Shown here: in pieces, positions 7,401 to 58,900 of the stretch
How positions within the stretch are numbered: position 1 is the stretch's first letter
How the letters are laid out: each line of letters starts with the position of its first letter
Position numbers and translations under genes: made by a program
The notes under the pieces: generated by a model
Database searches by the model: none
The model's input: the letters and a program-made list of their open reading frames with translations, nothing else
Told to the model about the DNA's origin: nothing
From: Owenia fusiformis
Lineage: Eukaryota > Annelida > Polychaeta > Sabellida > Oweniidae
Length of the DNA: 64,000 nucleotides
Assembly: GCA_903813345.2 (NCBI GenBank)
Contig: CAIIXF020000001.1
Span: 47,261,885-47,325,884 of the forward strand
Direction of reading: 5' to 3'

Positions 7401-10400
7401 TGCTATCAACTCTTCACTCCATTCTATCACTTCGTGAACATTCTCCTTCAATGCATTCTGGTTTTCGGCAAGATCGCTGCACAGTTCTTTAGTTTCATCC
7501 TGGTTTGCTTTTATTTGTTCTTGACACTCTTTTATTTCATTAAAATCATTTCTCAGGTTTTCATTTTCTTCTCTTGATTCATGAGTGCTTTCTTTCAGTT
7601 CTTCTATGCAGTCATTCAAATCAGTTTGTTTTTCCATTATTTCATTTAAATTTGGCATTAGTTCATTTTGTTGACATTCTTTCAGCTGGTTTTGGCCATC
7701 TGTCAAATCCTGTAGATATTCCTTTAGTTCAGCATTGGAGGATTCTTCTGGTTCTTGCATATGTTCATGTATTTCATCGAGACTTTCCTTCATTTCCAAT
7801 TGACAATCTTTGATTTCATTTTGGTTATCCACCAACTCATGTATATATTCATTCAATTGGCCTTGTCCCTCTTTTATTTCATTTTGACATTCTTTTATTT
7901 CATTCTGCCCTTCTGTTAACTCATTGATCACTTCATTAGCTTCATGTTGACTTCCTTTTATGTTGTCCAGGTTTTCTTTTATTTCAATCTGGCATTCATT
8001 AATTTCATTCACATTTTCCTTTATGTCATTTTGTACTTGTTTTATCTCTTGAATAATTTCAAGAAACTCTGTTTGACCTTCCCGGACTCTCTGAACATTT
8101 TCATTGAATTCATTTATATTTTCAGAAATTTCACCAATGCTCTCATTTGTGTCATTCTGAACTTCAATTAACTCCTGAATATTCTCCTCCAGTTCATTTT
8201 GACTTTCTTTCAATCCCTGTAAAGTCTCTTCCTCATTATTTTCATTCAGTTCACCTACCATTTCTTTTATTTCAGCCTGGCATTGAGTAAGGTCTTTTAT
8301 ATTGTCCTTGAACACATTTTGACGCTCATTAAACTCTTGTTGGAAATCTTTTAAACCTGCTTGACCATCCTTAAGCACTTCAAGATTTTCCTTAACATGA
8401 TTTTGCCACCAGTTAACACCATTAATGTTCTCTTTTAATTCATTTTGCCCTTCAAGCAGATTTCCAACTATGTCTTTGATTTGCTTCTGCCTTTCATTGA
8501 ATTCAAGTTGACATTCTTTAATGTCACTTTCACTTTCTTTTAGCTCAGTTATGCTTTCCTTTATTTCATCTTGACATTCTTTCATCTCATTGATGGTCTC
8601 CTTAATTTCAACTTGGAAATCATTCAATTCATTTGAATTACTCTGCCCTTCATCTATTTCATGGTCATGTTCTTTTATTTCCTCTTGCCCTTCCATTAAT
8701 TCATTCATTATCTCCTTCATCTCATCTTGTCCCTTATTCAGTCTATTTATTTTGTTATTGATTTCCTCATCAATGCCTTCTAATGTATCAGCCATTTCTT
8801 CATTGACTTCCTTAATTTGTTTTACACATTCCAGTAGTTCATTTGATTTCTCAAGCAGATCATTCTGTGTGTCTTCATTCATATTCTCCTTCTCACCATC
8901 CATTAACTCTTCAATATGTTCCATAAGCTCATCATGATCTTCTTCCATTGCAGTTTGACCACTTTCAAGTGTTTTCATACCTGAAACAATGGTTTTATCT
9001 AGATTTTTAATGTCCTTTTTAGTGGCAGGATCCATTTTCCCTCCATGGACACTCCATCCATAAGTGAGGAACACTACAAAAAAGATTATAATTCCATTCA
9101 TTTTATTTTAAATAGTATCACACATAATCATATGGAAGTATTATAATAAAATTAAAATATTTTGAGTCAATATCTAGGTTTTCTGAACATACAGTATTGA
9201 CATTTTGATTTGTGTTCACCAATAATTAGCAACAATAAAACAACTAATTCAAATGTTATGATATATCATAATATTACTGACCTTTAAAATGTTAAATGCT
9301 ACCTTCAATTTTAGGCGAAATACCAATGTGAACTTCATACAGTGCAACTCAGTCTAAGCCTCCAAAAATGGAGAGATACTTGTTTAAACATATCATATTT
9401 GTAGTTTAATGTGAGCTGCCATCAGTTGTAATTTTTTGTACTATTACAATTAATGTGATTATACATATTAGTTTGCAATGTCTTTACCTTGATGCAGGCA
9501 TCCCTTTTTGTAATGCACAAATATCAACAAGAAATAGGGGTCATAAATTTGCCATTTTCTTGAAAAACATTGAACATCTTATTTCTGTATCTATAGGTCA
9601 GTTTTCATAAAAATGATTCACACTTTACTGCCATTATTGTTATTGCCATTATACAGGGTGACACAAAAAATGACACCCACCTTACGTATAATCTGTTTGT
9701 CTATTAACATATAGACTTGTCCTTTGGCACGTTTAAAGTAGACATAATGCAAAAGCATGTCAAGAAATTTCAGATGTGTAGCTCAAGTGGGTCAAATTTT
9801 ATGAGCGTTACAACATTTGCTCTAAATATCTTCCATTCCTTTACAGACACACATGGATTCTACACAAAAAATGCCACCAGCTTTTGTAACATAACTTTGT
9901 AAATACTACTACTGATGTAATGTAATTTTGTAATGCTCAAAAATGTGCATCTAGGTGAGCTAGTCATCTGAAACTTCTTGTGGAGTTGCAAAATGGATTG
10001 TAGTTCTAATGTGCAGAACTTCTTCAGACAAATAAGTTCTGAAATATTTTGTGGGTGGGTGTCATTTTTTGTGTCACACAGTATTTAGAGTTATGATTGT
10101 TTATCTGGAGGTTTTCTTTTACTTCTGTCACTACTTCTATTGTGAGGTCTAGAAAGTTTACAAAATAGAACAAGTGTGTTTTTCCAGCAAACAGAGGAGC
10201 AAGTGAAGTTACTGAAGTATCAGCGTAGACTGGAAGAGGAGTTGAACAGGCAATACATGGACCTATCCCTACACCAAACCATGTACAAGCTTACAATGGA
10301 GGCCAACCACAAACTGGCAGAATCACTAAGGAAAGAATTTAAAGTGCCTGACAGAAGGTAAAATTAAGTATTCTATCTCCCATTAATTTTCCTGAATAAC

Positions 10401-14267: not shown

Positions 14268-17200
14268 ATGATGACGTCTACGACTGCCCCAACAATGAAC
14301 AATAATTTTGTCAAAGAACATGATCTCGATACTACCCAAGATGGGACTATTGGGAAACTATTTTCGTCAGCCAATGAACATCCAGAACCAATAGAGGCTA
14401 TTATAACAGGTAAAGTTCAATATCATCTGTAGTCCTGGATTCTATGAGTTTTCATAATAATATCGCTGATTGTTTAGCTATCGTTACCGCTTTGTAATTA
14501 CCCGGGTAGGAGTAATGAGATTCATGGTATAATGTAAGGTTACACATTCTGATACTCATAGCATCTTTCTGAGAAGATTTGAGATGTCATGGTTTATCAT
14601 GATGAAGATTACATGTCATTGTTACCTAAAATGTTAGTGTACTTATCACATTTGACATGATATCTACCATGAACAAGAAATGTAGGTCTTATATAATGAC
14701 AAACACGTCTTTCAGGGACTATTCCCAAGTGGATAAAGGGAGGATTACTTAGGAATGGACCAGGGAAATTTGAAGTTGGCGAGGACAAATACAACCATTG
14801 GTTTGATGGCCTTGCCCTATTGCATCGATTTGACTTTGAAGACGGTGTCGTCAAATATCATAGTAAATTCTTAAAAAGTGATTCCTATGTCAAGGCCATG
14901 GAGCAGAATCGAATTGTAATATCAGAATTTGGTACATTTGCCACCCCAGATCCATGCAAAGGATTTTTGGATAGGTAGGTATTGATATACGGCTTTAAAA
15001 TCGTCTGCTTAATTGAATATTCAACTGTAACATTCTATATACTCCTGTCATACCTTGGAACATGCATTTGAATGATTTGTAGATTCCTATCCAAATTCAA
15101 GCCATCTGTATCAGACAACAATAATGTGAATATATTTCCCATCGGTGACGGGGTTTATACAGCAACTGAGACGAGCCTTCTGCGGAGGATAGACCACGAA
15201 ACACTTGATACGGAAGACAAGGTAAGTTGGTATTTGTGTTTTCATTATGTCATATGCCGTAGTCTAGAATATAGGTCTCATTCCCTTTATTACCAATTTT
15301 GATAAATCCTGTTTTAATGGCAGGTGGATTTGGTGAATCTGGTTTCTGTAAACCTCTCGACAGCCCATCCTCACTACGACCAAGACGGGACGTACTATAA
15401 CATTGGAAGCAATTTCAAGGCTGGTTTATATCATGTTATCAAAGTTAAACCTAACGTAAACGTGTCAGATCCAGTTGAAGGTGCAAAAATACTGAATACA
15501 ATTAAAATGGAGAGCAGAGCTAAACCAGGCTATTACCATAGGTGTGTATCTATTTATGCATCCCTTTGTCAGATTTCTCTTCATCAGCCTTTGTTCATAG
15601 GTGTAAACTTACGTCTAGATAAAACACAAATCACCACTTTAATTTAAAGATCTTGTATGCACTTGTAAAACCATTTATTCACCATAAACTTTTAGTTTCT
15701 CTATGTCTGCCAACTACATTATCTTCCACGAACAGCCATTGCGGATGAATCTGTTGGGTATTATGACGAGGCCGCTGTTTAAAACAGACATAGCCAAATT
15801 GATGATCTTTGACAGGAAGTTGAAATCAAAGTTCCATATCTGCGATAAAAATACAGGTAGGGTACAATATTCAGGAGTTTCTACAGTTTCTACAAAGAGT
15901 AGAACTTTTACCACAAAACATCAAGGCTCCGTTTCTGTGGACTTGTTGTGGCAGTCACGCGCGCTAACATTCGACATGTCATCATTTGGATACCCATTGC
16001 ATCCTCTTTCTAACAATGTTTATTTACCAAAATGGGTGTGTTTACATGTACATTGTACATAAATCAAGAGAATAATAACGTTTAACTTTATAAAGCCTAT
16101 ATTATTAGCGAAAAGCGTCCACCGTAACTTGGAATTAAAGAAAAATATTGCCGGAATATCAGGTCCTAATTTTCACAAATATTGTAAAATGACCTGATGT
16201 ATACAAAGTTATATAAAATGAGAAATATATTCGGTACATGAATTTTTTTTAAAATGTCCTACTTTTCTACCTTAACATAGGTCGGTTTTCCCAAAGTCAG
16301 TAACTGTTGCATACCGTGGCTGACACTATTTATCGTGTATTGTACAAATCGTGTACCATTTTTAACTTATTTTCATCTTCATTTTCTTACATCACTCTAC
16401 AGGAGAAACATGGCCGCTTAAATTTGTAATGGAACCATTTTTACACATCCACACGATGAACTCATTTGAAGAAGACGGCCATCTCGTCATAGACATGGCC
16501 TGTACTGACGAAGCCTCCCCATACGATGACTTCTACCTAAGTAGCTTCAAGAAGGTACGAATACATTTTAGATCGTCAATACTTCTATCATATACAGGGG
16601 CGTAGCCTACTTTCAGTGAGGGGGGTCGATCGCCAAAAGCCGATTTTCAGTCAGGGAGGTACAATCGTGGCATAAGAAACCCCCAAAATGTTAAAGCTCT
16701 TTTCTTCTTCTCTATCTAATAGATCTATTTTATTGGTTATGGGGGACACCCCCTCCTGGCTACGTCTAATGATATATAACACATTATTTAATTTGACACT
16801 TGTTGTTTGTACATAACATTTCTTTTTGTAGATGACTGCGGATGATGCTGCACCAAAAATGAAGGATGTTAAGTTAACGCAACTCCCACGGAGATTCGTG
16901 ATCCCATTAGATGTAACACCCGAAAGCTCTAAAGATGTCAATCTTGTCACACTATCTGGAACAACTGGTAATAGCACATCTTCAAGTTAGGAGGATGGCC
17001 TCATTTATTCTATCATATATATACAAGGGTTCCAAAATATGTATACTTGCACACATTTTTGTCACCTCTATCACCTTTAATATGCAGGATCCAGATCTAA
17101 TTCTTCAACGTATGAAAACAGTTCAGCTCGATTTTAAAATGCTCTAGGCGTTAAAATATATTTGCAGATACTTGAGTTAACCTGAGATAAAATTGATAAA

Positions 17201-19474
17201 TGGACTTCTAAAACACCACTAAATCACACAACCCATCTCTCATTTTTCCAGGAATATATTGGTAAATCAAAAAATATTCAAAATATATGAGCAACGGTGT
17301 GCATGTTATGAGCAACGGTGTGCATGTGTGAGAATAAAGGACGATTCTCGGTTTGGAGAAAAGTCTCCTAGGCTAATAATTTTTTTTATGAAAAATATAG
17401 AAATATAACCCAAATTAAACTATGAATATTTAAAAGAGGACATTTAAATCTATAAGATGTAAAAATAACAAATTGGTCTGAAGCAGGGATAACGCTCAAT
17501 TAGACCGATTCGATAAAATACAAGTCTCGATTTGGGGGGAAAAGTTCATCAGTGTACTGCGCTAATATTTTTTGGCGAAAAATCTAGAAATATTACCCAA
17601 ATTAAATACTATTCAAAAGAAGACATTCAAATCTATATTATGTAAAAAAAATCAAATTTGTCCGAAGCAGGGATAATGCTCATTTAGATTGATGAACTTC
17701 GTTCTCCAAACCGAGAATCGTCCTTTGAATTTGCATATTGATGGAGTAATAAGTTGACAGAATTGACTTGATTTTTGGACTACTCGGGCCTGTAGTGCTA
17801 ATTTAATTCAAGATTCATCAATCCAGTTATTGTTAAAGCCATCCTCTGGTTAAGTAGTCCATAACTGTTGTCATCATAATATGTCGGCATCACTTGTAAT
17901 CGGCTCGTTTACTGTAAATATTGTTGTCCCTAAAGCACCCCCTTGTCCATTCAAGTGCACGAAAATAAGGACATAGAAGATGGGAGAGTGTTCGACTAAC
18001 TGTTTTTTCTTTTGACTCAACTTATATAAACAGATACGTCGACATATAAATCAACAAATTGAGAGTGTCCCTCTCTCCTTCCAGCTACTGCGATCCTAAA
18101 AGAGGATGGCTTCGTCCACTTGACTTACGAGCCTTTATACACTGATGAATTTGTGAAGATGAGTAGTGGTTTCGACTTTCCAAGAATAAATTACGACTTT
18201 TACAACACAAAGCCGTACAGGTATTGCTACGGGGCTGGCTTTGATAGGATTCTGGTGGACAAGTTGATCAAACTTGATATTTCTACAAAGAGTGGCAAGG
18301 TAAGTCTGAGACTGAAACATCATATCCAATTCAATTCACGATCATTTCTCTTGCTAACTAAATATGATAATATCGTCCAATATCACATATTTAGATATTA
18401 TACCATATGTTACACTACTTTTAATAATGATAAGATAATCCTGTTCCAATTCAGGTGTGGAAAGAGGACGAGTGTTACCCATCAGAACCAGTGTTTGTTC
18501 CATCGCCCAATGCTACTGAAGAGGATGAAGGTATATATCAGGTGTCCAAAAAGTGAATTGCTTTTTGACAAGTATTTTCTCATCGCTTGATCACTAAATT
18601 TCTAAAGTAGCCCAAGGGTATCATTAAAGCAAGTTGTTCAAATGTGAAAGAGATCGGTCACACGTTATGTGAGAAATCATAAATTCAAAAATGCATATCA
18701 AAAATCCAGTATCAGATCTGTGCAAAGCGAGACCTTCATAGCGTTTGTGGCTGCTATCAGGTGATATCATCTGTCACTCAGTTTCAGTCTCAAATAGCTC
18801 GACTGTGTCAGAGCTATTTGTTTCATTATTCTCTGTATCTAAAATACCTGTGCCAAAATACGTTCTGATTTCCAACCGTTTTCAGTGTGTAGGGCTAAAC
18901 AATGTCTTTAAGTGATAGCGATGAGGCTTCCTTTGAAAACTGTTTCAAGGTGAAACGTTTGGGTGGAAGATGAATCGTAAAGGAATTGAGGAATTAATAC
19001 AAGAATTAGAGTCATGTTACTGTAATTAGATGAACAAAAATGCAACAAAACAAAACAAAAAATTCCTTCAGACTTAAATAAGTGTATTTTCCAGTATTTA
19101 TATGGCACTTTCTAATGTTCCTAATAGAAAATTCGGCTCATCCATTGATGAGAATATCGTTGTCAAAAGCTGTTCACTTTTTTGGGACACCCGATGGATG
19201 ATGTTATATGTATTATAGCTCCCATAAAACGAGCCAATTTGTCAAGTGGTCCCTCTCTCAGTTCATTCTAAAAACATACTTTTATAATTCTCTGCATATA
19301 TTATAATTATGCACCTTTCTTTATTTTGCAGGTGTGGTATTATCAGTGGTTATAAGCCCAAACAATGCCAAACCTACTTTCCTGTTGGTTCTTGATGGCC
19401 AGAGCTTTACCGAGTTGGGCCGAGCGACTATTCCCTACGACATCCCGTATGGTATGCACGGGATGTTCATGTAA
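14268..19474 (+). CDS. Carotenoid oxygenase family enzyme, copy A (BCO1/BCO2/RPE65-like), complete
   Basis: Ten exons: 14268-14409, 14716-14974, 15083-15221, 15324-15541, 15696-15856, 16403-16554, 16832-16967, 18085-18299, 18455-18530 and 19332-19474. All have AG/GT borders, and the phases close to 547 codons (546 residues, the size of animal BCO1). The family cleaves carotenoids or isomerises retinyl esters with a non-haem Fe(II) on a beta-propeller. The four iron histidines are placed as expected: H195 (TAHPHYD), H252 (YYHSFSM), H323 (LHIHTMN) and H542 (GMHGMF). [16 protein letters not shown] and the PDPCK motif (residues 125-129; the Cys is palmitoylated in RPE65) are present. No signal peptide is visible, so it is a cytosolic or membrane-associated enzyme. 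The ATG at 14268 is followed at once by a second ATG. Whether the substrate is beta-carotene, apocarotenoids or retinyl ester cannot be told. Confidence 0.92.
16595..16768. mobile_element. hAT-like MITE in intron 6 of BCO-A
   Basis: Ends CAGGGGCGTAGCC... and ...GGCTACGTCT with a G-run next to the left end. The same element sits at the same place in BCO-B (36564-36821), so it was inserted before the two genes duplicated. Confidence 0.65.
17336..17726. mobile_element. MITE with 25-bp perfect terminal inverted repeats, in intron 7 of BCO-A
   Basis: The ends are exact inverted copies over 25 bp (core GGACGATTCTCGGTTTGGAG). The interior is two diverged direct repeats of about 180 bp (each with CTAGAAATAT/ATAGAAATAT, ACCCAAATTAAA, CATT(T/C)AAATCTATA, and GAAGCAGGGATAA). 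A short direct repeat, GAGCAACGGTGTGCATG, is duplicated just upstream at about 17289-17325. The element is absent from the matching BCO-B intron, so it arrived after duplication or was lost there. Confidence 0.8.
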
Positions 19475-32400: not shown

Positions 32401-35400
32401 CTAACATGAGTGACGCGTTTCAAACATCCGTCAACGGGGGGGGGGGGGGGGAGGTACGAAAAATTTCGAACGGATTGCGTGACATATACGTAATTGGCGT
32501 GAAAAGTCCGAACGAAATGCGTACATTTTTTTCCTGCGTTCGTATTTTTGCTGTGTAGACGATCTTTTTTAGAAATTTTTCTACAGAAATATTTTTGCTT
32601 GACAATTACCAGGTAAAATGCGTATTTGCGTGACATTTTCTGTCACGCAAAAATAACTGGCGTGACTACAAATTCTTCAGCAAATGCGTGACAAATACGC
32701 AAATTGCGGGACAGTTGACAGGCCTGATATAGGGGTTCGATTGACCTACATCAAATTATAGGGAGTCAGGTTACTTTTTGAGATATCAGCGTCCGTTTAT
32801 TGTAACTCGCGTTTGCTACCACTTCCTCAATTCTGATATGACAGGCAAACGCGTAGTAAACATGCTCACGTTCGGAACTATTTTGACCTACATCGCTATT
32901 TTCGTAATTCAAATGAAAGTTGAAGTCCTCTTTATTTTGATACCAAATAGTGGCATACTAGGTACCCTAGAAGCCAACTATGGGTTATTTAGAACGATAC
33001 CACAGGTTTTTAAATGGACTATATAGGGGTCATACCTTTTGGCGGATGGATATGGAACCTCATACCATACGATAAGCTCTAAAAAACATTCTAGCTATTT
33101 TCTTCTATCTAATGGGTAGCAAACGCCCCTTCCTTTTTATTGGGCTTTCAACGTTTACTACCATTCCCTGTTCCCGGGCTACCATTTTTTGACTGGGTTT
33201 GGTAATCCCCGGGTAACCGGGGCTAATGCCCTCCCCGGGTTTTGCACTTGTTCCCAAAATATCCGTATGATATCTGAAATATCCCCCCGCGCATTGCGCA
33301 TGCACCAGAAAATTCGAAAATCAATATTTGTCGGTCCTCTAGCGTGTAAACACAGCATATCTCCCGTACCGACAATTTATTTGTTGGTCCTCTAGCGTGC
33401 CACCACATCAGAGTCTAGAGTACCGACAATTGTAACATTTCCCATGTTATTTTCCCATAGGGAAAACTCATGCTATCAATTGTTTTCAGCATGATTTTGG
33501 TCATCGAAAATTGATATCTTCAAAACTAGACTTTCAATACCATTCTACTTTCGAAATGTTTGAATTGAAAGAAAACATATTGTTTCAATAAAAAACACTG
33601 TATTTATGTCCAGAAAGTACTCATGGTGAAAGATATGACCGTGTAAAATCACTTGCCATACTGCAACATGGACCTTTAGATTCATTCAAAGAAAAATAAC
33701 ATAATGATTTGGAAACCATCTTTATTTTCCTTTTCATGATTTTCTGAAAATTCAAAATATTATATTCAGTAACCTTTCCGAACGTGCAAGTTCTAACTAT
33801 TTTTTAGTCACGTTTTCGGATCCGGACGGCTGGAAAATCGATTTTATTTTGATCCTGGTCGTCTAAATGATTGACTGAATTGACTGAACTCAATTATCTG
33901 AGTTCAAAATATTTCAAAAATTCCGCATGTTTTGTGACTTCCTGTTGACCCCAGTTGCCTATCTTGAGACCTTAAATAATCCGAAGTCAAACTTTCTGTA
34001 CTTATGGGGCAACCCTCGTATAATCGAAGTTCTCTCTAGACTATTGTAAAACCCATCGTCCTAATTTCGAACTCAGTAGTAACTTGAAAAGGTCATGTAA
34101 GGCTCTCGCCACTATTTTTTCCAATGCTCCAAAGAATCTTATCTGAGGAATTTGATATGCTAGTTTATTTTATTAAGATAACTTAGAATATGCCTTTGAA
34201 TAATTTGTAGATTCTTATCCAAATTCAAGCCATCTGTATCAGACAACAATAATGTGAATATATTTCCCATCGGTGACGGGGTTTATACAGCAACTGAGAC
34301 GAGTCTTCTGCGGAGAATAGACCACGAAACACTTGATACGGAGGGCAAGGTTGGTTTGTATTTGTTTTTTAATTTTGATTAGGATATTTTGATATAGTTT
34401 TTGAAACTTAAATGAGACTTACCTCAAATTCAAAATAAAGAAAAGTCTGGGAATTTGGCTAAATCAAAATTTTCACTACTTATATATAATGATTTTGTAT
34501 TTTATCTTTGGAAAGATATAGCCCAAAGACGATTCAACCGACATTTAACTGAAAAATATGAAACAACTATACAAAGGTCGGGGAGAAGTAAAATAAGCAC
34601 TGAAAAACAAAAAAGTAACATACAATAAAACAACTTGACCAAAATGTTTAACCTAAGATGGCGGACGGGAAGTGTCGATTTCGGTATTTTTAGTTTTCAT
34701 CCAATTATACTACTTTTAAGTTGACATTATGCTATGGTATTTGAACTAAATCAGAGTTATATGACATGGAAACTCTTGAGTATGACCATTTGTTCATATA
34801 TCATGCCTGGGCGCCACAGTTCGCCAAACCTTCCATCGATTAAGGAAAGGTAACTGGAAATGTATGATACTGTAACGGTCATGAAACCCAAATCCCAGTT
34901 ACCTTCCCTAAGCGCTGGAAGATATCGTTGCCTACGCACGATATATGAACAAATGATAATACTCCGGAGTTTCCATGTCATATAAACCTGGTTTATTTCA
35001 AATATCAAAGCATTACTATGAAGTAGTTTAATTCGATGAAAACTAAAACTATCGAAATCGACACTTCTCGTCCACCATCTTAAATGCGAAGGTAACGAGC
35101 GTTACCTTCGCTTACTGACCAGTTAACATAATGGGGTTCTATTTTATTGGCAGGTGGATTTAGTGAATTTGGTTTCTGTAAACCTAGCGACGGCTCATCC
35201 TCACTACGACCAGGACGGGACGTACTATAACATTGGAAGCAATTTCAAGGCTGGTCTATATCATGTTATCAAAGTTAAACCTAACGTAAACGTGTCGGAT
35301 CCAGTTGAAGGTGCAAAAATACTAAATACAATTAAAATGGAAAGCAGGGCCAAACCAGGCTATTATCATAGGTGTGTATCTGTTTACTGCTTTATCTTTG

Positions 35401-38400
35401 TTCTGATAGGTGTAGAAGTATGCGTGGGCTCCTACATGTAAACTACAATCCGTTGTTGAGACTATGATTCAAATGAAATAAACACATTCACCATTTTAAA
35501 ATCAGGATGATCCTTAACTATAAAAAGGTGCAATGATGAATAAAATTCCTATAACGTTGATTCATGAAATGCGCAAGTGTATTTCATTGTTGACAGTCAC
35601 TAGACAAATGTTGGGTTGCAAAGGTTTTCGGCCTAGCTTTTTAAAGATATGCGCTTTTGGGTAAAAGACTAAAGCTATGTCCAGATAAAACAGCATACAG
35701 GGTGACAAAAAAACTGGAACCCAGTACGTTTGTACGTTTGATACATAATACAAATAAAACATTAGCACACTTGAACCTTTTAGTTTCTCTATGTCTGCAA
35801 ACTACATTATCTTCCACGAACAACCATTGCGGATGAATCTGTTGGGTCTGATGGTGAGGCCGTTTTTCAAAACGGCGATTGACAAATTGATGATCTTTGA
35901 CAGGAAGCTGAAATCAAAGTTCCATATCTGCGACAAAAACACAGGTAGGATGCAACATTCAGGAGTTTCTACGAAGTGTAGAACTCATATACAGCACACT
36001 GAAGTACCGTTTCTGAAAACCTAAAGAGTCACTTTGATTTTCAATGATGTCATTTTCAGCAAATGCAGCACTCGCGCGATTTCAGATCAATATCATCTCG
36101 AGTGTGCGAGTCGAGGGACTACAAACGGTGGTCAGAACGCATTTAATAAAATAACATCAAGATATACATCATACTATCATTCAATGGCATTCACCTTAAT
36201 GATTATTCATACATCTGAATCTCTTTTTTTACTTTTAACCTTTAGACTACTTTGTAAATTATGTAATTTAATTTGATGTACTTTTTATGCTCTCCTAACA
36301 CGGAGGAAATAAGGAAACATCAACATAAACATGATACATCTTCAACTTCATTTTTCTTACACCACACTACAGGAGAAACATGGCAGCTGAAATTTGTAAT
36401 GGAACCATTTTTACACCTCCATACAATGAATTCATTTGAAGAAGATGGTCACCTGGTCGTAGATATGGCTTGTACTGACGAAGCCTCCCCATACGATGAC
36501 TTCTACCTAAGTAGCTTCAAGAAAGTACGATATATTTTAGATCGTCAATACTTTTATCATATACAGGGGCGTAGCCAGCTTTCAGTGAGGGGGGGGGGGT
36601 GCGATCGCCAAAAAAGCCGATTTTCAGTCAGGGAGGTGCAATCGTGGCATAAGAAACCTCAAAAAGTGAAGATTAGATTTGAATTTTATAAAAATTGATG
36701 CAACTTCCTTCAAAGTTGAGCTAGAAACTTCCGAAATAAAATGCATTTTAAAGCTATTTTTCTTCTATCTAATAGATCTATTTCATTGATTAATGGGGGG
36801 ACCCACTCTTGGCAACGTCTAATGATATATAACACATTATTTAATTTGACACTTGTTTTGCTTGTACATAGCATTTCTATTTTGTAGATGTCTGCGGATG
36901 ATGCTGCACCAAAAATGAAGGATGTTAAGTTAACACAAGTCCCACGGAGATTTGTGATCCCATTAGATGTAACACCCGAAAGCTCTAAAGATGTCAATCT
37001 TGTCACATTATCTGGAACAACTGGTAATAACACTTCTTCACGTTTGGAGGATGACCTCATGCATTTAAGGGTTCCACAATATATACCAGTGCACATTTTG
37101 TCACCTCTTATCACTTTTAATATTCAAGATCCAGTTCCTTTTCTTTCTATGAACAATAAATCATTGGCTTTTTGTGTTGCAGCATCTTCTTATTAAAAGA
37201 CACCGGATATAGCCCAACATTGCAAAATGTTCTACGTTATCATTATCTCTATAATTCATATTTTTGCAACTATCAATGATTTTGATATTCAACTTGTTGA
37301 TCGCATATTATATAAACGTACAAATAGCCATTTAAACACTGCTACAATACTACTCCAATTTTGTTGTACCTGTTGCTCATATACCTGGAATATTATATAA
37401 CTCAAAACATTCCAAATATACATGTATGAGATTGTGCAACGTGTACATGTGTGACGACGTGACAAACTTTTTTAACAACTCTGTTGAAATAACGTTAGCC
37501 AACTTTTCATTGATACTGCTCTATCCGGATGGCCACAAAGGCTAAAAGCTATCATAATCGAGGGCATATAAGTATACATCAACAATTTAATTGGGCAACC
37601 ACAGTTCCGGAGTGTCTTCCTCTCTTTTCCAGCCACTGCGATCCTAAAAGAGGATGGCTTTGTCCACTTGACTTACGAGCCTTTATACACTGATGAATTT
37701 GTGAAGTTGAGTAGTGGTTTCGACTTTCCAAGAATAAATTACGACTTTTACAACACAAAGCCGTACAGGTATTGCTACGGGGCTGGCTTTGATAGGATTC
37801 TGGTGGACAAGTTGATCAAACTTGATATTTCTACAAAGAGCGGAAAGGTAAGTGTGAGACCGAAACATCACCGGATAATTTCTTCTGAGCAGTACTGTCT
37901 AAGGTAACTCTCATTGACAATCATGATCATAATTTCGTCACCCTCAGAGGCTTCAGTTTTGTAAAAGGAAACCGAATTACATTTTTAACGACCACATCAA
38001 TTTATTGAAGATTATGTAGGTACTTGATGATATGATATGTATTCTCAAAGTAATATGGGAAAGATGATTTTAATTTAGGGCTACACAAGTCTGTTTCTGC
38101 CATGTGAGTCTTGATAATTAGCATTCCAAATAGTAAAAATAGTTATTTTGGTATCATGCTGTCTCATTTGTCCGAAAACCTATCCATTATAATTCATGAT
38201 GACATCTTTCTGAGGTAATACTATAATACAGTCAAGATATCACATCATATATAACATAATGTTCATAATATAAAATAATCCTGTTCCAATTCAGGTGTGG
38301 AAAGAGGACGAGTATTACCCATCAGAACCAGTATTTGTTCCTTCACCCAACGCTACTGAAGAGGATGAAGGTATGATATATAAGTAAAACTCCTAAAAAT

Positions 38401-42114: not shown

Positions 42115-42697
42115 TGTTACAATCTACGTACCGAATAAGTCAGTTGTTATGATAAGCTTTTCTTATTTTAGTTTTATACGTTGACGATAATGTTAACAGG
42201 TAAAGAAATGTATATGTACCGAGATACTCTGTTATGAAAATAGTAACCCCTGGATTTTCTCGTATTGAAAACTATCGAAGTGAACTATAGCTATCTCATG
42301 AGTACTAACCAAACTTTCAAAATGACCTTAGTTAAGCTTTAATGTCCTGTTTAAGAACCCATGTTCTTACTTTTGAATGGATTCAAGCAATACTCAGATA
42401 AACACAATATATGTAGAGTCCTGGATTAAAATATGATGAAAACCGAATGTTAGATCAAAGACTATACTGCCGGTTAAACATTAACCATTTGACTAAGTAT
42501 CTGAGGAATGGTAAGTTCATAGGGCAAACATTTTAGACTTGTATAACATACTGTAATGAAAAGGACAACTGTCTTAGAACATGTTGGCAAATACGATCAT
42601 TGCGGCGAGGAATTATCGGCGTCAAAGACCTCTCCATGTTATTGCAGGGAGGCTGTAAGTCCGTCGAGATTGGAATATTGGAAATAGGAAAATATAC

Positions 42698-43486
42698 ATG
42701 ACAGGGACAATGTATGCGCAACAGATGCATATTACACTGGACAAAGATACCATGGAATCAAAAGATGTATTCGTCGTCGGTGACGTGCATGGCTGTTTAG
42801 ATGAACTTAAAGAACTGCTGACGAAAGCAAATATCGTTGAAGAAAATAATGACACACTTAAGGATGACGTTGTACTGATATTCGTAGGTGATATAGTTAA
42901 CAAAGGGCCTAAGACGGCAGAGGTTGTAAAATATATAAAAGATTTGGGTCCTGGTGTTTATTCAGTAAGGGGGAATCACGAAGAAAAAGTTATTAAAAGG
43001 AAATGGAAACGAAAATCATATTGTGTTGATCTGGTACGTGGTATAACAGAGAGTTCAAAAATTGATCAGCTGACTATAAGTGATGTAGAATACTTAGAAA
43101 GTTTTCCCTACACTATTTCTATCCCACATCTAAATAGTATTATCGTTCATGCAGGAATACTTCCAAGCATCCCGCTACACGAGCAGACTGTTGTCAACAT
43201 GACGTGTATGCGAAACATTGTCCAAAACAGCGCTGGGGCAATGTCAGGTTATGTTGAAACCGACAAGGGGTGTCAATGGGCAGATTTGTGGCCAGGGCCA
43301 CAGCATGTGTATTACGGTCATGATGCACGGCGGGGGAAGGACGATGTCGGCAGGCCCCGTGTACAGCTTCACCAATTTGCAACCGGGCTAGATACTCGCT
43401 GTGTAAAAGGTGGTGAACTGACTGGAATATTTTTAAATTCAAAATGTATCCATTCTGTTAAAGCTCATCATAAATATTCCGATTAG
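42698..43486 (+). CDS. ApaH/PrpE-like metallophosphatase (calcineurin-type phosphoesterase), single exon
   Basis: 262 residues in one uninterrupted frame. The in-frame TAA about 40 nt upstream supports an ATG at 42698 or one of the three further ATGs within the first 20 codons. The metal-site motifs of the PPP/ApaH superfamily are in order: GDVHG (28-32), GDIVNKGP (64-71), GNHE (92-95), VHAG (150-153), GH (207-208) and ATGLDTRCVKGGELTGI (228-244). These bind two metal ions and hydrolyse phosphoesters. Bacterial relatives cut bis(5'-nucleosyl)-tetraphosphates, and eukaryotic ApaH-like phosphatases can act on nucleotide polyphosphates or mRNA caps. No signal peptide or extra domain is visible, so a soluble cytosolic enzyme is likely. 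Lack of introns contrasts with its neighbours and suggests retroposition or transfer in the lineage. Confidence 0.88.
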   Translation: MTGTMYAQQMHITLDKDTMESKDVFVVGDVHGCLDELKELLTKANIVEENNDTLKDDVVLIFVGDIVNKGPKTAEVVKYIKDLGPGVYSVRGNHEEKVIKRKWKRKSYCVDLVRGITESSKIDQLTISDVEYLESFPYTISIPHLNSIIVHAGILPSIPLHEQTVVNMTCMRNIVQNSAGAMSGYVETDKGCQWADLWPGPQHVYYGHDARRGKDDVGRPRVQLHQFATGLDTRCVKGGELTGIFLNSKCIHSVKAHHKYSD

Positions 43487-44321
43487 TTTGGAACTGGTAG
43501 GATGACGACCTTTTTCAAGTTGGGGGCACATGGCGTAATCTAGCAAAACTAGTACAAAGACGTCTACGTAGTTTCAACAATAGGAAAATATTTATGCCAT
43601 GCATTTGTATGGGCGATTGGTCATACGTATAGGTTGGCGTTTCGATTGTATATGCAAGCTTAAACTACCTAATATTAGGAACAATCTCCTTATCGTAAGG
43701 CGCTTACCCTAAGTAGCGATAGAATATTCAGAAATTGGAATGTCCTATTGAATTTTCTCCTTTTTTATACACCTAGTATACAGGTATAAGCGCTAAACTG
43801 TTAATCTAGGCTATATGCACACTTTGTACAAAGCTGAGAGATGTAGAGCATGTTTACGATAAGGAATGTACCTGGATATAGCTTAGTTTAGGATTCCAAT
43901 AAGGAACCCATTAAGATTTCAAAAAACATGCGGATACCTCGCACTAACTTTTATAGAAGCGAAATAAAACTCTTGGCTGCACATGTGTGGAACTTAAAAT
44001 CAAGGATCAAATGCGAGAATAGAACCATGCATCTTTCAGATTTCTAAACATGACATTCAATACAAACACAAGAATTATTTATCTTTATTACTGTATTGCT
44101 TTATATTTCTTACAAAGCTTACATGTATAACGTCAAATCATACATGTGGATTAGTTCTATCTACTTGTTGATCAAAATATTTAGGTATATCAACCCTATA
44201 ATCAAAACATTTCATATAAATATTTGTTTTGATTATGCAAATATATTTAGAACCACCTATTGAAGCTCTTTAGTCATTCTAACAAAGGTCCAGCAACTCG
44301 AACGATAGAGTTGTGTAATCT
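43487..44321. other. Convergent spacer between the phosphatase and the Cys-rich gene
   Basis: No gene seen. About 65 bp near 43600-43665 (GGGCGATTGGTCATACGTAT...) also occur at 29852-29918 inside the hAT-like element, so this is a fragment of the same dispersed repeat. Confidence 0.6.
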
Positions 44322-47300
44322 TTATTCTAAGAGCCTTTTAAGAATCATGTACAGCTCATTAGTCGACCCAGATTCCTCTCTCTTCTCGGCTGTAGCTGCA
44401 ATCAAATATTGAAATTACCACTGATATCAACGCAAATGAATCAGATTGAGACCACGTAGGGAACATTTTAGTATTACAAATTAAATTTTAAAATGTTCGC
44501 ACTTAGAAAAAGTCTGATGTATGACTTTTACAAAAAGTCTCCAATGAAAATTGTGTAATTAGCGATGTTCCTCAGGTTCTATTCAATTTTAGGTCCCATT
44601 TTGTTTCTCTTATTCATAAATGACCCCCATGTAGTATATTCCAAATGTTATATTCATGCTGTGTACGCTCCAAAGTTCATAGTTTCAAATGTTCTCTTAC
44701 CTGGTTTGGCTTTGCATACACGATCCAGAATGGCATAGTCTTGGGAACAACATGGAGCATCTTTGGTGCATACAGAAGAAGTGTCAGAGACACAGCATTT
44801 CCCTCTGCAAGAACTACCGTCTCCATTTACAGATGTACAGCTTCCGCCAACATTAGTGTAAGCACGCGTAGATCGACCAAGTGCCAAGTCTAGCGTTGCC
44901 AATGTCATCTCTCTCTTCTGGGCCTGTGCATTATTTTGATTATCTGCTCCTTTGGCTGCAATCGAAGAATATGGTCTTGAATTAAACACCCATATTCAAC
45001 GAAAACGTAACATTCAAGAGAATGCCAAGCACATATAATACATATTGTCAAAAGCAAAAGAAACACAAAATAGAACTCATATTATCTCTTGCTGGTTTTT
45101 GGAGGAGATTGGTAAGGTGGACACAAAACGTTTGTACGCAGACTTATCTTTAAAGGCTTGGGCTATATTATTTTCATACCTGGTTTGGCTTTGCATACAC
45201 GATCCAGAATGGCATAGTCTTGGGAACAACATGGAGCATCTTTGGTGCATACAGAAGAAGTGTCAGAGACACAGCATTTCCCTCTGCAGGAACTACCGTC
45301 TCCATTTACAGATGTACAGCTTCCGCCAACATCAGTGTAAGCACGCGTAGAACGACCAAGTGCCACGTCTAACGTTGCCAATGTCATCTCTCTCTTCTGG
45401 GCCTGTACATTATTTTGATTATTTGCTCCTTTGGCTGTAATGGAAAAGGGTAACTGGTCAACTCGTACCCAAGACAACTCGTACCAAAGACAACTCGTAC
45501 CCAAGTATATATTTTGTTTTGAATCAAGCGTTGGACTGGGAATGTGAATAGATATACATATTATAATTGTAACATACTGTTCAGAATAGTTTAAAGTTTG
45601 AAGAAGAATTTTCGGAAGAAATTGATTTAATTTTGTGACATTTTGAGCTGAGTGTCAATTTATATTGACTATTATTTTATATTGGTCACAAATTCAGGAT
45701 GTTCGAGTGAAGAGACATATGTTTATTCCACATATTCATAATCATTTTTCAAAATATTGTATGTCTATGAGTGTTTGGAAAAAGTGTCAGATCTAATGTT
45801 GTAATTATATTTATTAATATATATGTTTGACAAAATAATGTTGAGAACAAGTGCTTCAAGCACTTCTTTTATTTAATAAAAAATGCTTTGATGATCCATT
45901 GAGAAAAAATGTCTTCTAAATTCAAAAAAATATTAAGGCTTATTTGATTCACATTATAACATGAAAGCATTACAAACTCAATTTTTTCCCTAATATGCAC
46001 CCATAATACTGAAAATAATCTTTGGTGCGAGTTGTCTTGGGTACGAGTTGACTAGGAAGCATTGAAAAGTATGGTCTTGAATTAAACACCCATATTCAAC
46101 GAAAATGTACCATTCAAGAGAATGCCAAGCTCGACTTATTTTCTTGGCACATAATACATATTTTCAAAGTCAAAAGCAAAAGAAACAAAATAGAACTCAT
46201 ATTATCACTTGCTGGTTTTTTGGAGGAGATGGGTAAGGTGGACACAAAACGTTTGTGCCAAGACTTATCTTTAAATGCTTGGGCTATATTATTTTCATAC
46301 CTGGTTTGGCTTTGCATACGCGATCCAGAATGGCATAGTCCTGGGAACAACATGGAGCATCTTCGGTGCATACAGAAGAACTGTCAGAGACACAGCATTT
46401 CCCTCTGCAGGAACTACCGTCTCCATTTACAGCTGCACAGCTTCCGCCAACATCAGTGTAAGCACGCGTAGAACGACCAAGTGCCAAGTCTAGCGTTGCC
46501 AATGTCATCTCTCTCTTCTGGGCTTGTACATTATTTTGATTATTTGCTCCCTTGGCTGAAATTGAGAGAATATAGCTTGATTCTTCTTTATAAATAGGTT
46601 AGGACAGGCTTTAACGACGTTTTGTGTATTATGGCAAACATCAATTTAACTTATCGATCAAGGAAAAGCGAAAAAACAATGTACAGTATGTGCTAAAAAT
46701 CGTCCATGTCTGTATTTGTTTCTACATTGATTTTGGAAATTATTTTGCTCTATGCACAGGAAACACTTCTGTCCCTGACACAATTGTTCCGAAAATGACT
46801 TAAATAAAGAATGAATGAGCTTCAAGGATTAATAAATAAGAAAGGTGAACAGGCACATTGGGACTCAGTTATCGTAAAGGATAGTGTTCTTCAAGTTGCC
46901 CTTCCACTCAGAGGATGATTAACAGAAACCTCGTGAATTAATTCATTTACAAATGTTATTTAATCGATCAAATGCATTGTAAAGCAAATTATTTTCTCTA
47001 AACCATTTGATAGATCAAGCAGGGGTTATATTTTTCCAACCATACAATAAGTTTTATAACATTTTAAAGATGCGATGTCAAAATGAGAAAATCCTTTTCT
47101 AAGTATGCTAAACTTTCACAATGAATCTAAATCTAAATGTCAAGACCTGACCCAAATGCCGAGACCTGGCTAAACTAATGTGATACTAAGGAAAAAATAC
47201 TCTTAAAACCTTTGGGCCTTAATCTGTCCAAAATGGTTGCCACATACCAGCATGGGATTTCAGCTAGAAGGGTAGGCAACTTCCCATATTTCATACATAA

Positions 47301-47499
47301 GCATTGCCTTTGGGTTTTCAAAATTGGAGAATGTACACAGTCCAAGAAAATCTTATTTTGTCTAATTGAAAGCCCATGATACCAGACTACTTTTTGACTT
47401 TTTAATTCTTGGCTGTTCTTACTTACAAGATGGGTACGACTGGGCTGCAGCCATCGTCAGCCCGAATACGATTATTGTCATCATAGTGATAGCTTCCAT
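44322..47499 (-). CDS. Secreted precursor with three tandem 8-cysteine modules, five coding exons
   Basis: Exons on the minus strand: 47499-47427 (signal peptide), 46555-46301, 45434-45180 and 44955-44701 (three modules of exactly 255 nt each) and 44395-44322 (tail). All junctions are phase 1 and the sum is 912 nt, 303 residues. Residues 1-20 are a clear signal peptide ending near AAA-QS. Each module starts (A/S)KGA(N/D)NQNN, has a Lys-Arg pair (QAQKREMTLATL), then GRSTRAYT, then eight Cys in the order C-x9-C-x3-CC-x7-C-x5-CC-x10-C. The tail exon again has AEKREE and ends LKRLLE. The modules are nearly identical, so they arose by recent exon duplication. Dibasic sites allow a propeptide cut into three Cys-rich peptides; this is inference. 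I do not recognise the fold, and signalling, defence or matrix roles are all open. Confidence 0.8.
45457..46052. mobile_element. 596-bp MITE in the intron between modules 1 and 2 of the Cys-rich gene
   Basis: The ends GTCAACTCGTACCCAAGACA... are matched in inverse orientation over 29 bp with one mismatch. The element is missing from the otherwise nearly identical intron between modules 2 and 3, so it arrived after the exon duplication. Confidence 0.85.
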
Positions 47500-47525: not shown

Positions 47526-47956
47526 CCTACAACAATCATTGATAAACAATCAGATCTTAGAAAGGTTGATAAGGATTTGATGAAAAACTGGTACGAAATC
47601 CGTTTTCTTCAAATTCTTGTTGATAAAGGGGCCAATGTATATTTTGTTTGTTTCATAGCAGCTGTGCACTTTGAAATGGTATATATTTTGTAGTGGATGT
47701 AGGAATTGCAGGTTCTAACTGAACTATCCCGGCTTAGGTTGTTTGTAAATATCTAAGATAAGTTAAAAACACAGTTTATAAAAAATCTAGTATTTTGGTG
47801 AAAGATTCTTAACTATTAAACTGACTTTCAAATCGAGTTGATCGATAGTTCTGACACCGGCATTTTAATTATAATTCAGTTTTACTAGATTACTAGAGTA
47901 ATTTTCCAACCTATTTTATTCCAACTTTGCAAGATAAAACAAGTTTAAAACTTACC
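47526..47956 (-). other. 5' untranslated intron of the Cys-rich gene (predicted)
   Basis: Upstream of the ATG at 47499, the minus strand has an acceptor (TTGTTGTAG, exon from 47526) and, about 430 nt further up, a consensus donor (GTGCAG followed by GTAAGT at 47955). A non-coding first exon ending at 47956 is therefore likely; the first transcribed base is unknown. Confidence 0.5.
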
Positions 47957-48391
47957 TGCACGAATGTATCCAATGAATGAGGTGACTCGTCTCTCCAACA
48001 ATTTACACAGCTGACTGCTGACCGCACTCGACCACTTATTATTTTAAAGGTATACTAGTAACCAGGAATGGATTATGACCTTTTCGAAATAGTACAAATT
48101 TTAGAATGTTTTTCATGAAAAACAACAATGTTAATCCTTTTTGATAAAATTCATAAAAGATGTTTACACAAAGGATCATTTAAGCTGATTTATGGAATAA
48201 TTTTCAACTTTTCTTCAAAAAGTTCCCCCATTTAAGGGCATATTCTACCTTTAAATACCGGGCGAGACAGGTTGTGATTGTGATGAACGCACATATACCT
48301 TCTATTCAATACAGGCACGATTTATTGTGTTGATAGTAAGGATTGTCAACTACAGCTGATACTTACCTTACAATGTTGCACACTTCTTATA

Positions 48392-55900: not shown

Positions 55901-58900
55901 TTTTTATCAGAATGTGTTTACAGCCAAATAAAATATCATAAAAAGAAATTGAGACAATGAAGAACTTGGAAACGGTGAATTAAATGCGTTATGTTACCAT
56001 TCTCTATATTTTTCGACTTATTAAGTTTATTAGTTTCAAGTCATGAATATCAAAATATTTCGAATGAAATGTAGTTGAAATGCTACTGTACCGGAAGTAA
56101 AGCCATCCTCTAGTTTAACGAGATTCACATTTCTAGGACCATCTTTAGCTATATCTAGTGGTAATACAAATCTCCTCGGATGTGTTAATTGGTCGCTTGT
56201 GAATTGTTCATCCAGATCTTTAGAATCAATCAACTAAAGCAAAGGTTTACATCAGATTGATTATGTAAGACCATTCAAAGTTGTTTAATCTAGGATGATC
56301 TTGATCTTGGGTTTCGTCATATTATTCTCAATCCAAGAATTCCCTCCACTTCGATATTTTTCTATTTGTATCATAACTAAAACATGTTATTTATATTCAT
56401 GTATTAAAACATTCTGTAAGTTGTTTTATACATTAAGGGCATCAACGCAACAAAGCTTTGAAACCTTGTTGAAGTTGAGTGAGGAATAGGGAGGTTAAAT
56501 TACACGTTTTTCAAACGTGTACGTGACGTGTAGTATTGTGGTCTTCTATGGATTAGTTCTCCCATTGTAATGTTCCTCTTGGCCGATTGAGTATAAAGGT
56601 ATACGGAAAATAATCATAATTAGGTTCCCGGTTCCAAGGAGACAGTCAATTGACAACGGGACAGTGATAATCGGGGATCGAACTACTACACGCTCGCGTA
56701 CAGTTTGTCCTCTTCATAAAGGGATTAAGAACTTTATGCTCAATCGGAAAAGTAAATACTACGAAACAGAGAACTCATCCCTAGAGAACCACACTTCTAC
56801 ACGTTCACGTACAAGTCCCCTTAACCCTACTATCACACCAAACTAGTTCTCACTACGTTCTCGAAAACGGGCTTAAACGAATGGATTTGACCTACTAAGA
56901 ACCCACTAAGAACCGTTTGGGATCTGTTTACAAACTTCATGAAACTACTAGAACGAGTAGGTCCTCCAAAACTTTTCTGGTGATCGTCAAAACGTTGCCG
57001 AATCGGTTTTAAAATGTGTGCGAACTGAATGAACGTAGCTACAACGTTCTGCGGTCTGTTCACGAACTTCATGGACTTTCTCGGACGAGGAATGTGATTT
57101 AGAATTTTGAATCGATTCAAAATTCGATGGCGACCCAGGCCCGTAGCCAGGGGGGGTTCGCAGGGTTCGGGCGAACCCCCCCCCCTGGCCAAAAATTCTT
57201 TCAAAATCATGCAGTTTTTGACCATTTTGAGCACTTCTCAAGTGATTTTAGCCTAATTTGGGCCAAAATTTGGGCCAAAATTGTCAAATGTGAACCCCCC
57301 CTGGGAATTTTTGAAAATTGAACCCCCCCTTGGCAAATCCTGGCTACGGGCCTGCGACCATACCGTTCTGTAATCAGGTCATGATGACCTTCTAGACTAA
57401 GGGACGCGTTATTGGACGTTGCACACCGTACAGGTATTCACTTTTTCGATTGAGCATAAAGGTACGAGGTATTTTAATTGTAATAAGGTCCCCGGAAGAT
57501 AGGGGAGAGTAATGCTACGAGTGTTCTACTTTTGATAACATTGTGGATGGAAAGGTGCTCACTCGGCCGAGCCCACCCTTGCACCCGGCAGACATATCAA
57601 TTATTTAGAGGAAATGCATCAAAGTTTTAGAAAGTTTCTCCATCGAGAAATTGGAGCAATTTTAGCTTCACATACGTTTTTCCAAACTGTTAATAACGTA
57701 TAGCATGTGCATAATGCACCACTATGATCTATCATGATATTTCGGTATAATGTGACCAGAAATGCATGTACATGTACCTTCCCAAGACTGCGCAAATATA
57801 ACCTATCGTATTGGGCCCCGCCATCAGAAGCACACACGTCTACTATAACATGATCGTCCTTTTCATAGGCATTCATGGAATGGAAGTTCACAAATGGTTT
57901 AGTGACATACTTTAGCGATCGCACTTCTCCTAAAATGCAATAGTTACACGTTTGGAGCTATGTATATCTTACACTGTCCATCCTTCAAATATTTTCGGAA
58001 AATGAAAACATCCTTACAACAACGCATGTATCTATCATTTTCTGAAACCGCCACTCGACGATTACTTTTGCGTTCAGTGTTAAATAGGTTTTGATATGAC
58101 TCTCATTCATCGAGATACGATCAAGACTATTATAAATATTCACCTGTTCTTTTATCACAAATGTGAAATATCGACTTGAGACTAGGGTCGAATTCCATTA
58201 ACTCATCAATGCCCTTTTTGTTGAAGTTTCGTGTAAGAAGTCCTAATGGACTAAATCTATAAGGCTGTTCGTGAAAGATAATGTAGTTTACGGTCATTGA
58301 GAAACTGTAAAAGACCAAAATTACATGTACCAATTATGTAGCCAAGTGAACAGAATCAAGGCAGGAAATGAATTATATGATTATTATATATGATTAATAT
58401 ATATAATATGTATACTTTTTGATCAATCAGTCAGCAAACTATTGCGGATCATATCTGGAGATTTTTAACGGGGTTATAGATGTAAAATAGTGGTTCACTA
58501 TAAGTTTTATTGTTTTACTGTTTCAAGGTATTCACACTACTATACCTAACACCTAGAAATGCATAAGACACTTTGTTTGTCTAATTGGATTGTTTAGTAT
58601 ATTTTTGAAAGTACCTTATCAACATCTAACTTTCAACCGATAAACCATTAATAAGGAACAGACAAATAAAAACAAATATATAATCATTACTAATAAGCCA
58701 AATAGGTTGCTCATGGAAGCCAAATGCAAGGTATAGTAGAGTGTATTTGCTACCTGTGATAGTAAGCAGGTCTCCTACTATTTTCCATGGGAATGGTATG
58801 TAGGATTTCGGCTCCTTCAACTGGATCGGCTTTGTTTGCTCCAGGGGATATCTTTATCACGTGGTAACATCCTGATTTCATGTTCGTACCTAAGTTGTAA

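What the first reader, a model, noticed from the sequence alone, without database searches (positions are those of the whole stretch)
44322..47499. Secreted precursor built from three near-identical 8-cysteine exon modules
A signal peptide is followed by three 85-residue modules, each on its own 255-nt phase-1 exon. Each has the pattern C-x9-C-x3-CC-x7-C-x5-CC-x10-C, and a tail exon follows. I cannot match this spacing to a family I know (it is not the WAP four-disulfide pattern). The gene may encode a new multi-copy peptide precursor. Peptide identity and activity are inference; the exon structure is read directly.
Basis: partly seen in the sequence, partly recalled or inferred. Interest (0 to 1): 0.78.

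Follow-up and report, generated by a model that had tools for sequence, protein, structure and literature searches.

The report
Worm gene for triplicate cysteine-rich peptide
A marine-worm-like animal carries a small gene for a secreted protein made of three near-identical cysteine-rich units that are probably cut apart, and two related genes lie elsewhere in its genome; it looks like a not-yet-named peptide family built in a familiar way.

Summary
On the minus strand, 47499-44322, a signal-peptide exon, three 255-nt exons and a 74-nt tail exon with GT-AG borders and phase-1 introns encode a 303-aa secreted precursor with three 85-aa modules (C-x9-C-x3-CC-x7-C-x5-CC-x10-C). A second gene on C3 of the same assembly has the same plan with four 69-aa modules (39-42% identical). 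A one-domain gene on C5 is a probable relative. A dibasic pair stands at the aligned place in 7 of 7 modules, KR in 2 of 2 tails, none between the first and last cysteine of any of the 7 modules. Best reading: a convertase-cut, multi-copy precursor of a four-disulfide peptide. Nothing over cut-off in Pfam or NCBIfam; no PDB sequence below E 0.2. The order C-C-CC-C-CC-C is that of conotoxin framework XVII; membership was not testable. The animal is probably an annelid. Activity is unknown; I favour a toxin- or defence-like secretion over a hormone or an uncut protein. No UniProt/nr search, transcripts or usable fold were available.

The parts
47956..48020 (-). probable 5' non-coding exon (the end near 48020 is a guess)
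   Evidence: read by eye: CAG|GTAAGT donor at 47955, TTTAAAA-type box upstream; no transcript
47427..47499 (-). exon 1, coding part: ATG and signal-like peptide MEAITMMTIIVFGLTMAAAQSYPS, ends phase 1
   Evidence: hydropathy maximum 2.47 over 10 residues from residue 3; no signal predictor run
46301..46555 (-). module exon 1 (255 nt, phase 1-1)
45180..45434 (-). module exon 2 (255 nt, phase 1-1)
44701..44955 (-). module exon 3 (255 nt, phase 1-1)
44322..44395 (-). tail exon: C-terminal peptide with two KR pairs, and TAA
   Evidence: same length (74 nt) as the tail exon of the C3 paralogue
44084..44089 (-). AATAAA, candidate polyadenylation signal (a second AATAAA at 44326-44321 overlaps the stop codon)
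45454..46055 (.). about 600-bp inverted-repeat element (MITE-like) inside the intron between modules 1 and 2
   Evidence: 37-nt arms, 95% complementary; 40 candidates scored of 329, each a long copy at 92-100% identity, the window's own included

Best explanation
It is a multi-copy precursor of a secreted, four-disulfide peptide. The signal peptide sends the 303-aa chain into the secretory route. Each module folds on its own around eight cysteines. A proprotein convertase cuts at the dibasic pair in each spacer, so three near-identical peptides (about 83 aa, or about 54 aa if a further cut falls at STR|AY) and a tail peptide are released from one mRNA. The module exons (phase 1-1) were multiplied in tandem at two loci, raising the dose of one peptide. 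I think it most likely that the peptide acts outside the body or at an epithelium as a toxin- or defence-like ligand (about 40%). A hormone (about 22%) and an uncut multidomain protein (about 30%) are the rivals. Shown: gene structure, paralogues, conserved cysteines and dibasic sites. Inferred: expression, cleavage, disulfides, activity.
For: Intact five-exon gene. Paralogue on C3 with the same exon plan: 76 + 4x207 + 74 nt, introns phase 1, 325 aa, four modules. Dibasic pair at the aligned place in 7 of 7 modules (6 KR, 1 RR) and two KR pairs in each of 2 tails; 0 of the 11 dibasic pairs of the two precursors lie between the first and last cysteine of a module. C1-to-C3 similarity exceeds what the cysteines alone give: 0 of 2000 cysteine-fixed shuffles reach it in either direction. 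The C5 gene encodes a signal-like peptide, one domain and a stop; 0 of 2000 shuffles reach its score against the 7-module profile or the C3 profile. dN is below dS in 3 of 3 C1 pairs and 6 of 6 C3 pairs. Known analogue of the plan: NnK-1 of a jellyfish, five ShK-like peptides in one six-exon gene with mono- or dibasic flanks (abstract and one passage of PMC11122761).
Against: No transcript, peptide or assay. The cysteine domains are not clearly cationic (net charge -2, +1 and +2 for C1, C3 and C5), which speaks against a classical antimicrobial peptide. Phase 1-1 exons are also usual for uncut extracellular modules (recalled). The C5 gene, with one domain, lends nothing to the cleavage model (its only dibasic pair is a KK just before the domain); its intron is in phase 2, unlike the others (read), and against the C1-only profile 2 of 2000 and 6 of 2000 shuffles reach its score. 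The tails of the two genes are not alike beyond chance (825 of 2000 shuffles). AlphaFold gave no usable fold.
Confidence: 0.6

Rival explanations
1. Uncut secreted multidomain protein, for example a tandem-domain protease inhibitor, mucus or tube component: repeated 8-Cys modules act together and the KR pairs are only exposed linkers.
For: Symmetric phase 1-1 exons are typical of shuffled extracellular modules (recalled); module number differs between paralogues (3 against 4), as in repeat proteins.
Against: Dibasic pair kept at one aligned place in 7 of 7 modules although the two loci are only 39-42% identical, KR in both tails, and no dibasic pair within the cysteine span of any of the 7 modules. 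No match over cut-off to known inhibitor domains in Pfam.
Confidence: 0.3
2. Peptide hormone or neuropeptide precursor with multiple copies, cut by prohormone convertase in neurosecretory cells and acting on a receptor.
For: Signal peptide, dibasic sites and repeated copies are the usual layout of invertebrate neuropeptide precursors, as in the same genome's FMRFamide precursor. Eight-cysteine regulatory peptides exist, for example schistosomin (passage of PMC4772807).
Against: No glycine-dibasic amidation site in the two precursors (read); long cysteine-rich modules in several near-identical copies are unusual for hormones (recalled); no match over cut-off in Pfam.
Confidence: 0.22
3. Not exclusive of the others: a member of a family already described in annelids or other lophotrochozoans that is in UniProt/nr but not in the libraries held here.
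For: No protein database of animals could be searched; the paper searches only cover text and were seen as listings.
Against: Nothing over cut-off in Pfam (24,736 models) or NCBIfam, no PDB sequence below E 0.2.
Confidence: 0.35

Closest known systems
Conotoxin framework XVII (Y-superfamily, ca17a)
   Same: Order of cysteines C-C-CC-C-CC-C in a secreted peptide precursor (passages).
   Different: ca17a comes from cone snail venom. Loop lengths and signal sequence were not compared. The gene here carries three modules in one chain, in a genome that looks annelid.
NnK-1 ShK-like multi-peptide precursor of Nemopilema nomurai
   Same: One gene of six exons, 297-aa precursor with five cysteine-rich peptides flanked by mono- or dibasic sites.
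   Different: Those peptides have six conserved cysteines (ShK type, K-channel blockers); here eight in another order; other phylum.
Annelid antimicrobial peptides (macins, BRICHOS/arenicin, perinerin)
   Same: Small secreted cysteine-containing peptides of annelids (passages of PMC6780910).
   Different: Perinerin has four cysteines; macins are described there as cationic with a CS-alpha-beta motif and knottin fold; the domains here are near neutral. Nothing over Pfam cut-off.
WAP four-disulfide core, granulin and colipase/Dickkopf domains
   Same: Eight or more cysteines, in part with adjacent pairs and in tandem modules (recalled).
   Different: For the 8 rows of A4 the only Pfam row at E<=10 is Conotoxin_I2, in 4 of 8, best E 2, far below its cut-off (HMMER's filters drop most matches above about 0.1).

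Membership tests
Conotoxin Y-superfamily (framework XVII) | cysteine order C-C-CC-C-CC-C | tested here: met
Conotoxin Y-superfamily (framework XVII) | conserved superfamily signal peptide | not tested
   no ca17a sequence was fetched; that superfamilies rest on signal sequences is recalled
Conotoxin Y-superfamily (framework XVII) | cone snail origin | tested here: inconclusive
   erythrocruorin linker domain present points to an annelid; mollusc hemocyanin domain gave no match, but that call's controls did not ring either
I2 conotoxins (PF17557) | score above the Pfam cut-off | tested here: not met
   best E 1.9; 9.1 bits against a cut-off of 27 for the C3 module
WAP four-disulfide core | Pfam model match and C-C-C-C-CC-C-C order | tested here: not met
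   no match; order differs (WAP order recalled)
multi-copy peptide precursors cut at dibasic sites | signal peptide | tested here: inconclusive
   hydrophobic N-terminus in 3 of 3 genes: best 10-residue hydropathy 2.47, 2.85 and 3.70; no signal predictor was available
multi-copy peptide precursors cut at dibasic sites | repeated peptide units separated by dibasic sites | tested here: met
   C1 and C3 genes; the C5 gene has one domain only
multi-copy peptide precursors cut at dibasic sites | actual cleavage and release | not testable with these tools
   needs peptidomics

The most novel reading that the evidence does not exclude
A lineage-specific family of four-disulfide peptides in an annelid, with a single-domain form (C5) and two genes in which the domain exon was multiplied in tandem independently (three copies on C1, four on C3), released by convertase cleavage as a dose-amplified toxin- or defence-like secretion that reached the cysteine order of cone-snail framework XVII independently.
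Probability: 0.3. Interest if true: 0.55.

Novelty: new member of a known kind. Interest (0 to 1): 0.42.

Why it matters
If the peptide is released as proposed, it adds an unnamed disulfide-rich peptide family to what is probably an annelid. It would also give a clean case of dose increase by exon duplication inside one gene, seen separately in two paralogues. The eight-cysteine domain could serve as a stable scaffold. The kind of system itself is known (for example NnK-1).

Tried and rejected
Family searches: Pfam with the spliced precursor, modules and paralogues, NCBIfam with one module and PDB sequences gave nothing over a cut-off. The precursor had two Pfam rows at E 0.046 and 0.15, below cut-off. 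PDB rows: best E 0.2 (a kinase), 1.1 and 0.26 ('K8 peptide'), none; I use none of them. AlphaFold with the three window modules gave mean pLDDT 46 (84 aa) and 52 (57 aa); I ran no fold search on such models. IMG/VR viral contigs (8 pattern stretches, none confirmed) and GTDB prokaryote genomes (68 stretches, none confirmed): no relative. A C1:4047497 match (E 0.072) was dropped from the family: a stop lies inside and its open frame holds 6 cysteines. Tail-to-tail similarity is not beyond chance (825 of 2000 shuffles); the C1 spacer resembles the two tails weakly (24 and 63 of 2000), the C3 spacer does not (366 and 1039 of 2000). C5 against the C1-only profile is weak (2 of 2000; 6 of 2000). 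Paper searches for a described 8-Cys family of this plan: I saw none in the rows listed (10 of 10; 1 of 1; 15 of 28; 1 of 1; 12 of 149). These were listings with the start of each abstract; beyond them I read only the passages. A search on genome size did not settle the species.

I evened out the odds in the text (toxin or defence 40%, hormone 22%, uncut 30%) so that they fit the confidence fields; no fact required a change of those fields.

Full report
What is there. The region was read on the minus strand. Exons at 47427-47499, 46301-46555, 45180-45434, 44701-44955 and 44322-44395 have GT-AG borders, all introns are phase 1, and the 912-nt reading frame gives a 303-aa chain: a hydrophobic N-terminus, three 85-aa modules and a 24-aa tail. 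Each module has C-x9-C-x3-CC-x7-C-x5-CC-x10-C. The three modules differ from each other by 5, 7 and 4 aa and by 10, 13 and 7 of 252 nt. dN is below dS in all three pairs, but the counts are small. A 5' non-coding exon is probable from a CAG|GTAAGT donor at 47955 and an acceptor at 47527, both read by eye. AATAAA stands at 44326-44321, over the stop, and at 44089-44084.

How the copies arose. The repeat unit includes intron sequence: 46565-46061 matches 45444-44961 at 90% with gaps (converted). In the intron between modules 1 and 2 sits a roughly 600-bp element with 37-nt arms, 95% complementary. The first look gave 329 candidates and 40 were scored. All 40 scored are long copies at 92-100% identity, the window's own included, on contigs C1 to C12. 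So the longer intron is a mobile-element insertion, not part of the gene's design.

Relatives in the same genome. The window lies in a 498,259,871-base assembly of 525 contigs. A search with module 1 gave 7 matches at E<=1: the three modules themselves and four on C3. The C3 gene has exons of 76, 4x207 and 74 nt, introns in phase 1, and encodes 325 aa: hydrophobic N-terminus, four 69-aa modules with C-x6-C-x3-CC-x7-C-x5-CC-x12-C, tail. C1 and C3 modules are 39-42% identical with 24 invariant columns. In A1 the last residue of each C3 row reads across the splice site; A4 leaves it out, and repeats the tests on A4. A search with the C3 module gave 8 matches at E<=10: four C3, three C1 and one on C5 (E 0.0255). 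The C5 place has a signal-like exon and one exon with eight cysteines (loops 10, 7, 0, 8, 5, 0, 12) that stops one residue after the last cysteine. Its intron is in phase 2, unlike the others. With cysteines held fixed, 0 of 2000 shuffles reach its score against the 7-module profile and 0 of 2000 against the C3 profile, but 2 of 2000 and 6 of 2000 reach it against the C1 profile. I call it a probable relative. A search with the C5 domain gave 6 matches: itself, the four C3 modules and one on C1 that I rejected. Only the best candidates are scored in this genome, so further relatives may exist.

Tandem multiplication seems to have happened separately, or to have been evened out, at each locus, because modules within a locus are far more alike than between loci. 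C3 modules 2 and 3 are identical in protein and differ by 1 of 204 nt; C3 module 1 differs from the others by 7 or 8 aa; dN is below dS in 6 of 6 C3 pairs.

Which animal. The genome encodes an FMRFamide precursor with 23 FMRFG copies, which points to a lophotrochozoan (recalled). The erythrocruorin linker domain gives 3 matches above cut-off of 6 scored, within about 15 kb on C6, one with a stop inside; this domain is known from annelids (recalled). The mollusc hemocyanin domain gave none, but that call's controls did not ring either, so it shows nothing by itself. COX1 was not found. Copies of the element lie on contigs C1 to C12, and the assembly size is near the 505.8 Mb with 12 chromosome-scale scaffolds reported for Owenia fusiformis (passage of PMC9977687). 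I hold an annelid as likely and Owenia as possible, not shown.

How it probably works. The two precursors hold 11 dibasic pairs: one at the aligned place of each of the 7 modules (6 KR, 1 RR) and two in each tail; none lies between the first and last cysteine of a module. Conservation of that site at about 40% identity is the main argument for cleavage into single peptides. The released unit would run from the residue after one pair to the next pair. STRAY is invariant in 7 of 7 modules, so a second, monobasic cut at STR|AY is possible but unproved. Cysteine-domain net charges are -2 (C1), +1 (C3) and +2 (C5), which is no classical cationic antimicrobial profile. The choice of a toxin- or defence-like peptide rests on analogy with other multi-copy disulfide-rich precursors, such as NnK-1 (abstract and one passage of PMC11122761), and is weak.

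Compared with what is known. Pfam gave no row for the C1 module, and Conotoxin_I2 at E about 2 for 4 of 8 rows of A4, far below its cut-off; the spliced precursor had two rows at E 0.046 and 0.15, both below cut-off. NCBIfam gave none. PDB sequences gave no row below E 0.2. The cysteine order is that of conotoxin framework XVII, named for ca17a in PMC4278219 and seen again in PMC6471451 (passages). Order alone is not membership; loop lengths and signal sequences were not compared. Structure models were of low confidence.

Verdict. A real, well-formed gene and a real small family, probably of a convertase-cut multi-copy peptide precursor. It is new to the libraries searched, of a known kind, with unknown activity.

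Noticed in passing
window 45454-46055: About 600-bp MITE-like element with inverted ends in the intron between modules 1 and 2; 329 first-look candidates in the genome, 40 scored, 92-100% identical.
   Followed up: partly
window 15318-18590, 35127-37907 and 57619-57957: Exons matching RPE65/carotenoid oxygenase (PF03055) in several places; five stretches shared by 15201-18700 and 35001-38100 at 85-96% identity point to gene duplication.
   Followed up: partly
window 7272-9107 (-): 611-aa open frame that starts with a signal-like sequence and continues as a repetitive, coiled-coil-like chain.
   Followed up: no
window 42659-43486 (+): 275-aa open frame for a calcineurin-like phosphoesterase near the peptide gene.
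   Followed up: no
G000:C6:23756702-23757375 (L022, L023): FMRFamide precursor with 23 FMRFG copies and three other RFG peptides in front (HMMRFG, YIRFG, HYMRFG).
   Followed up: partly
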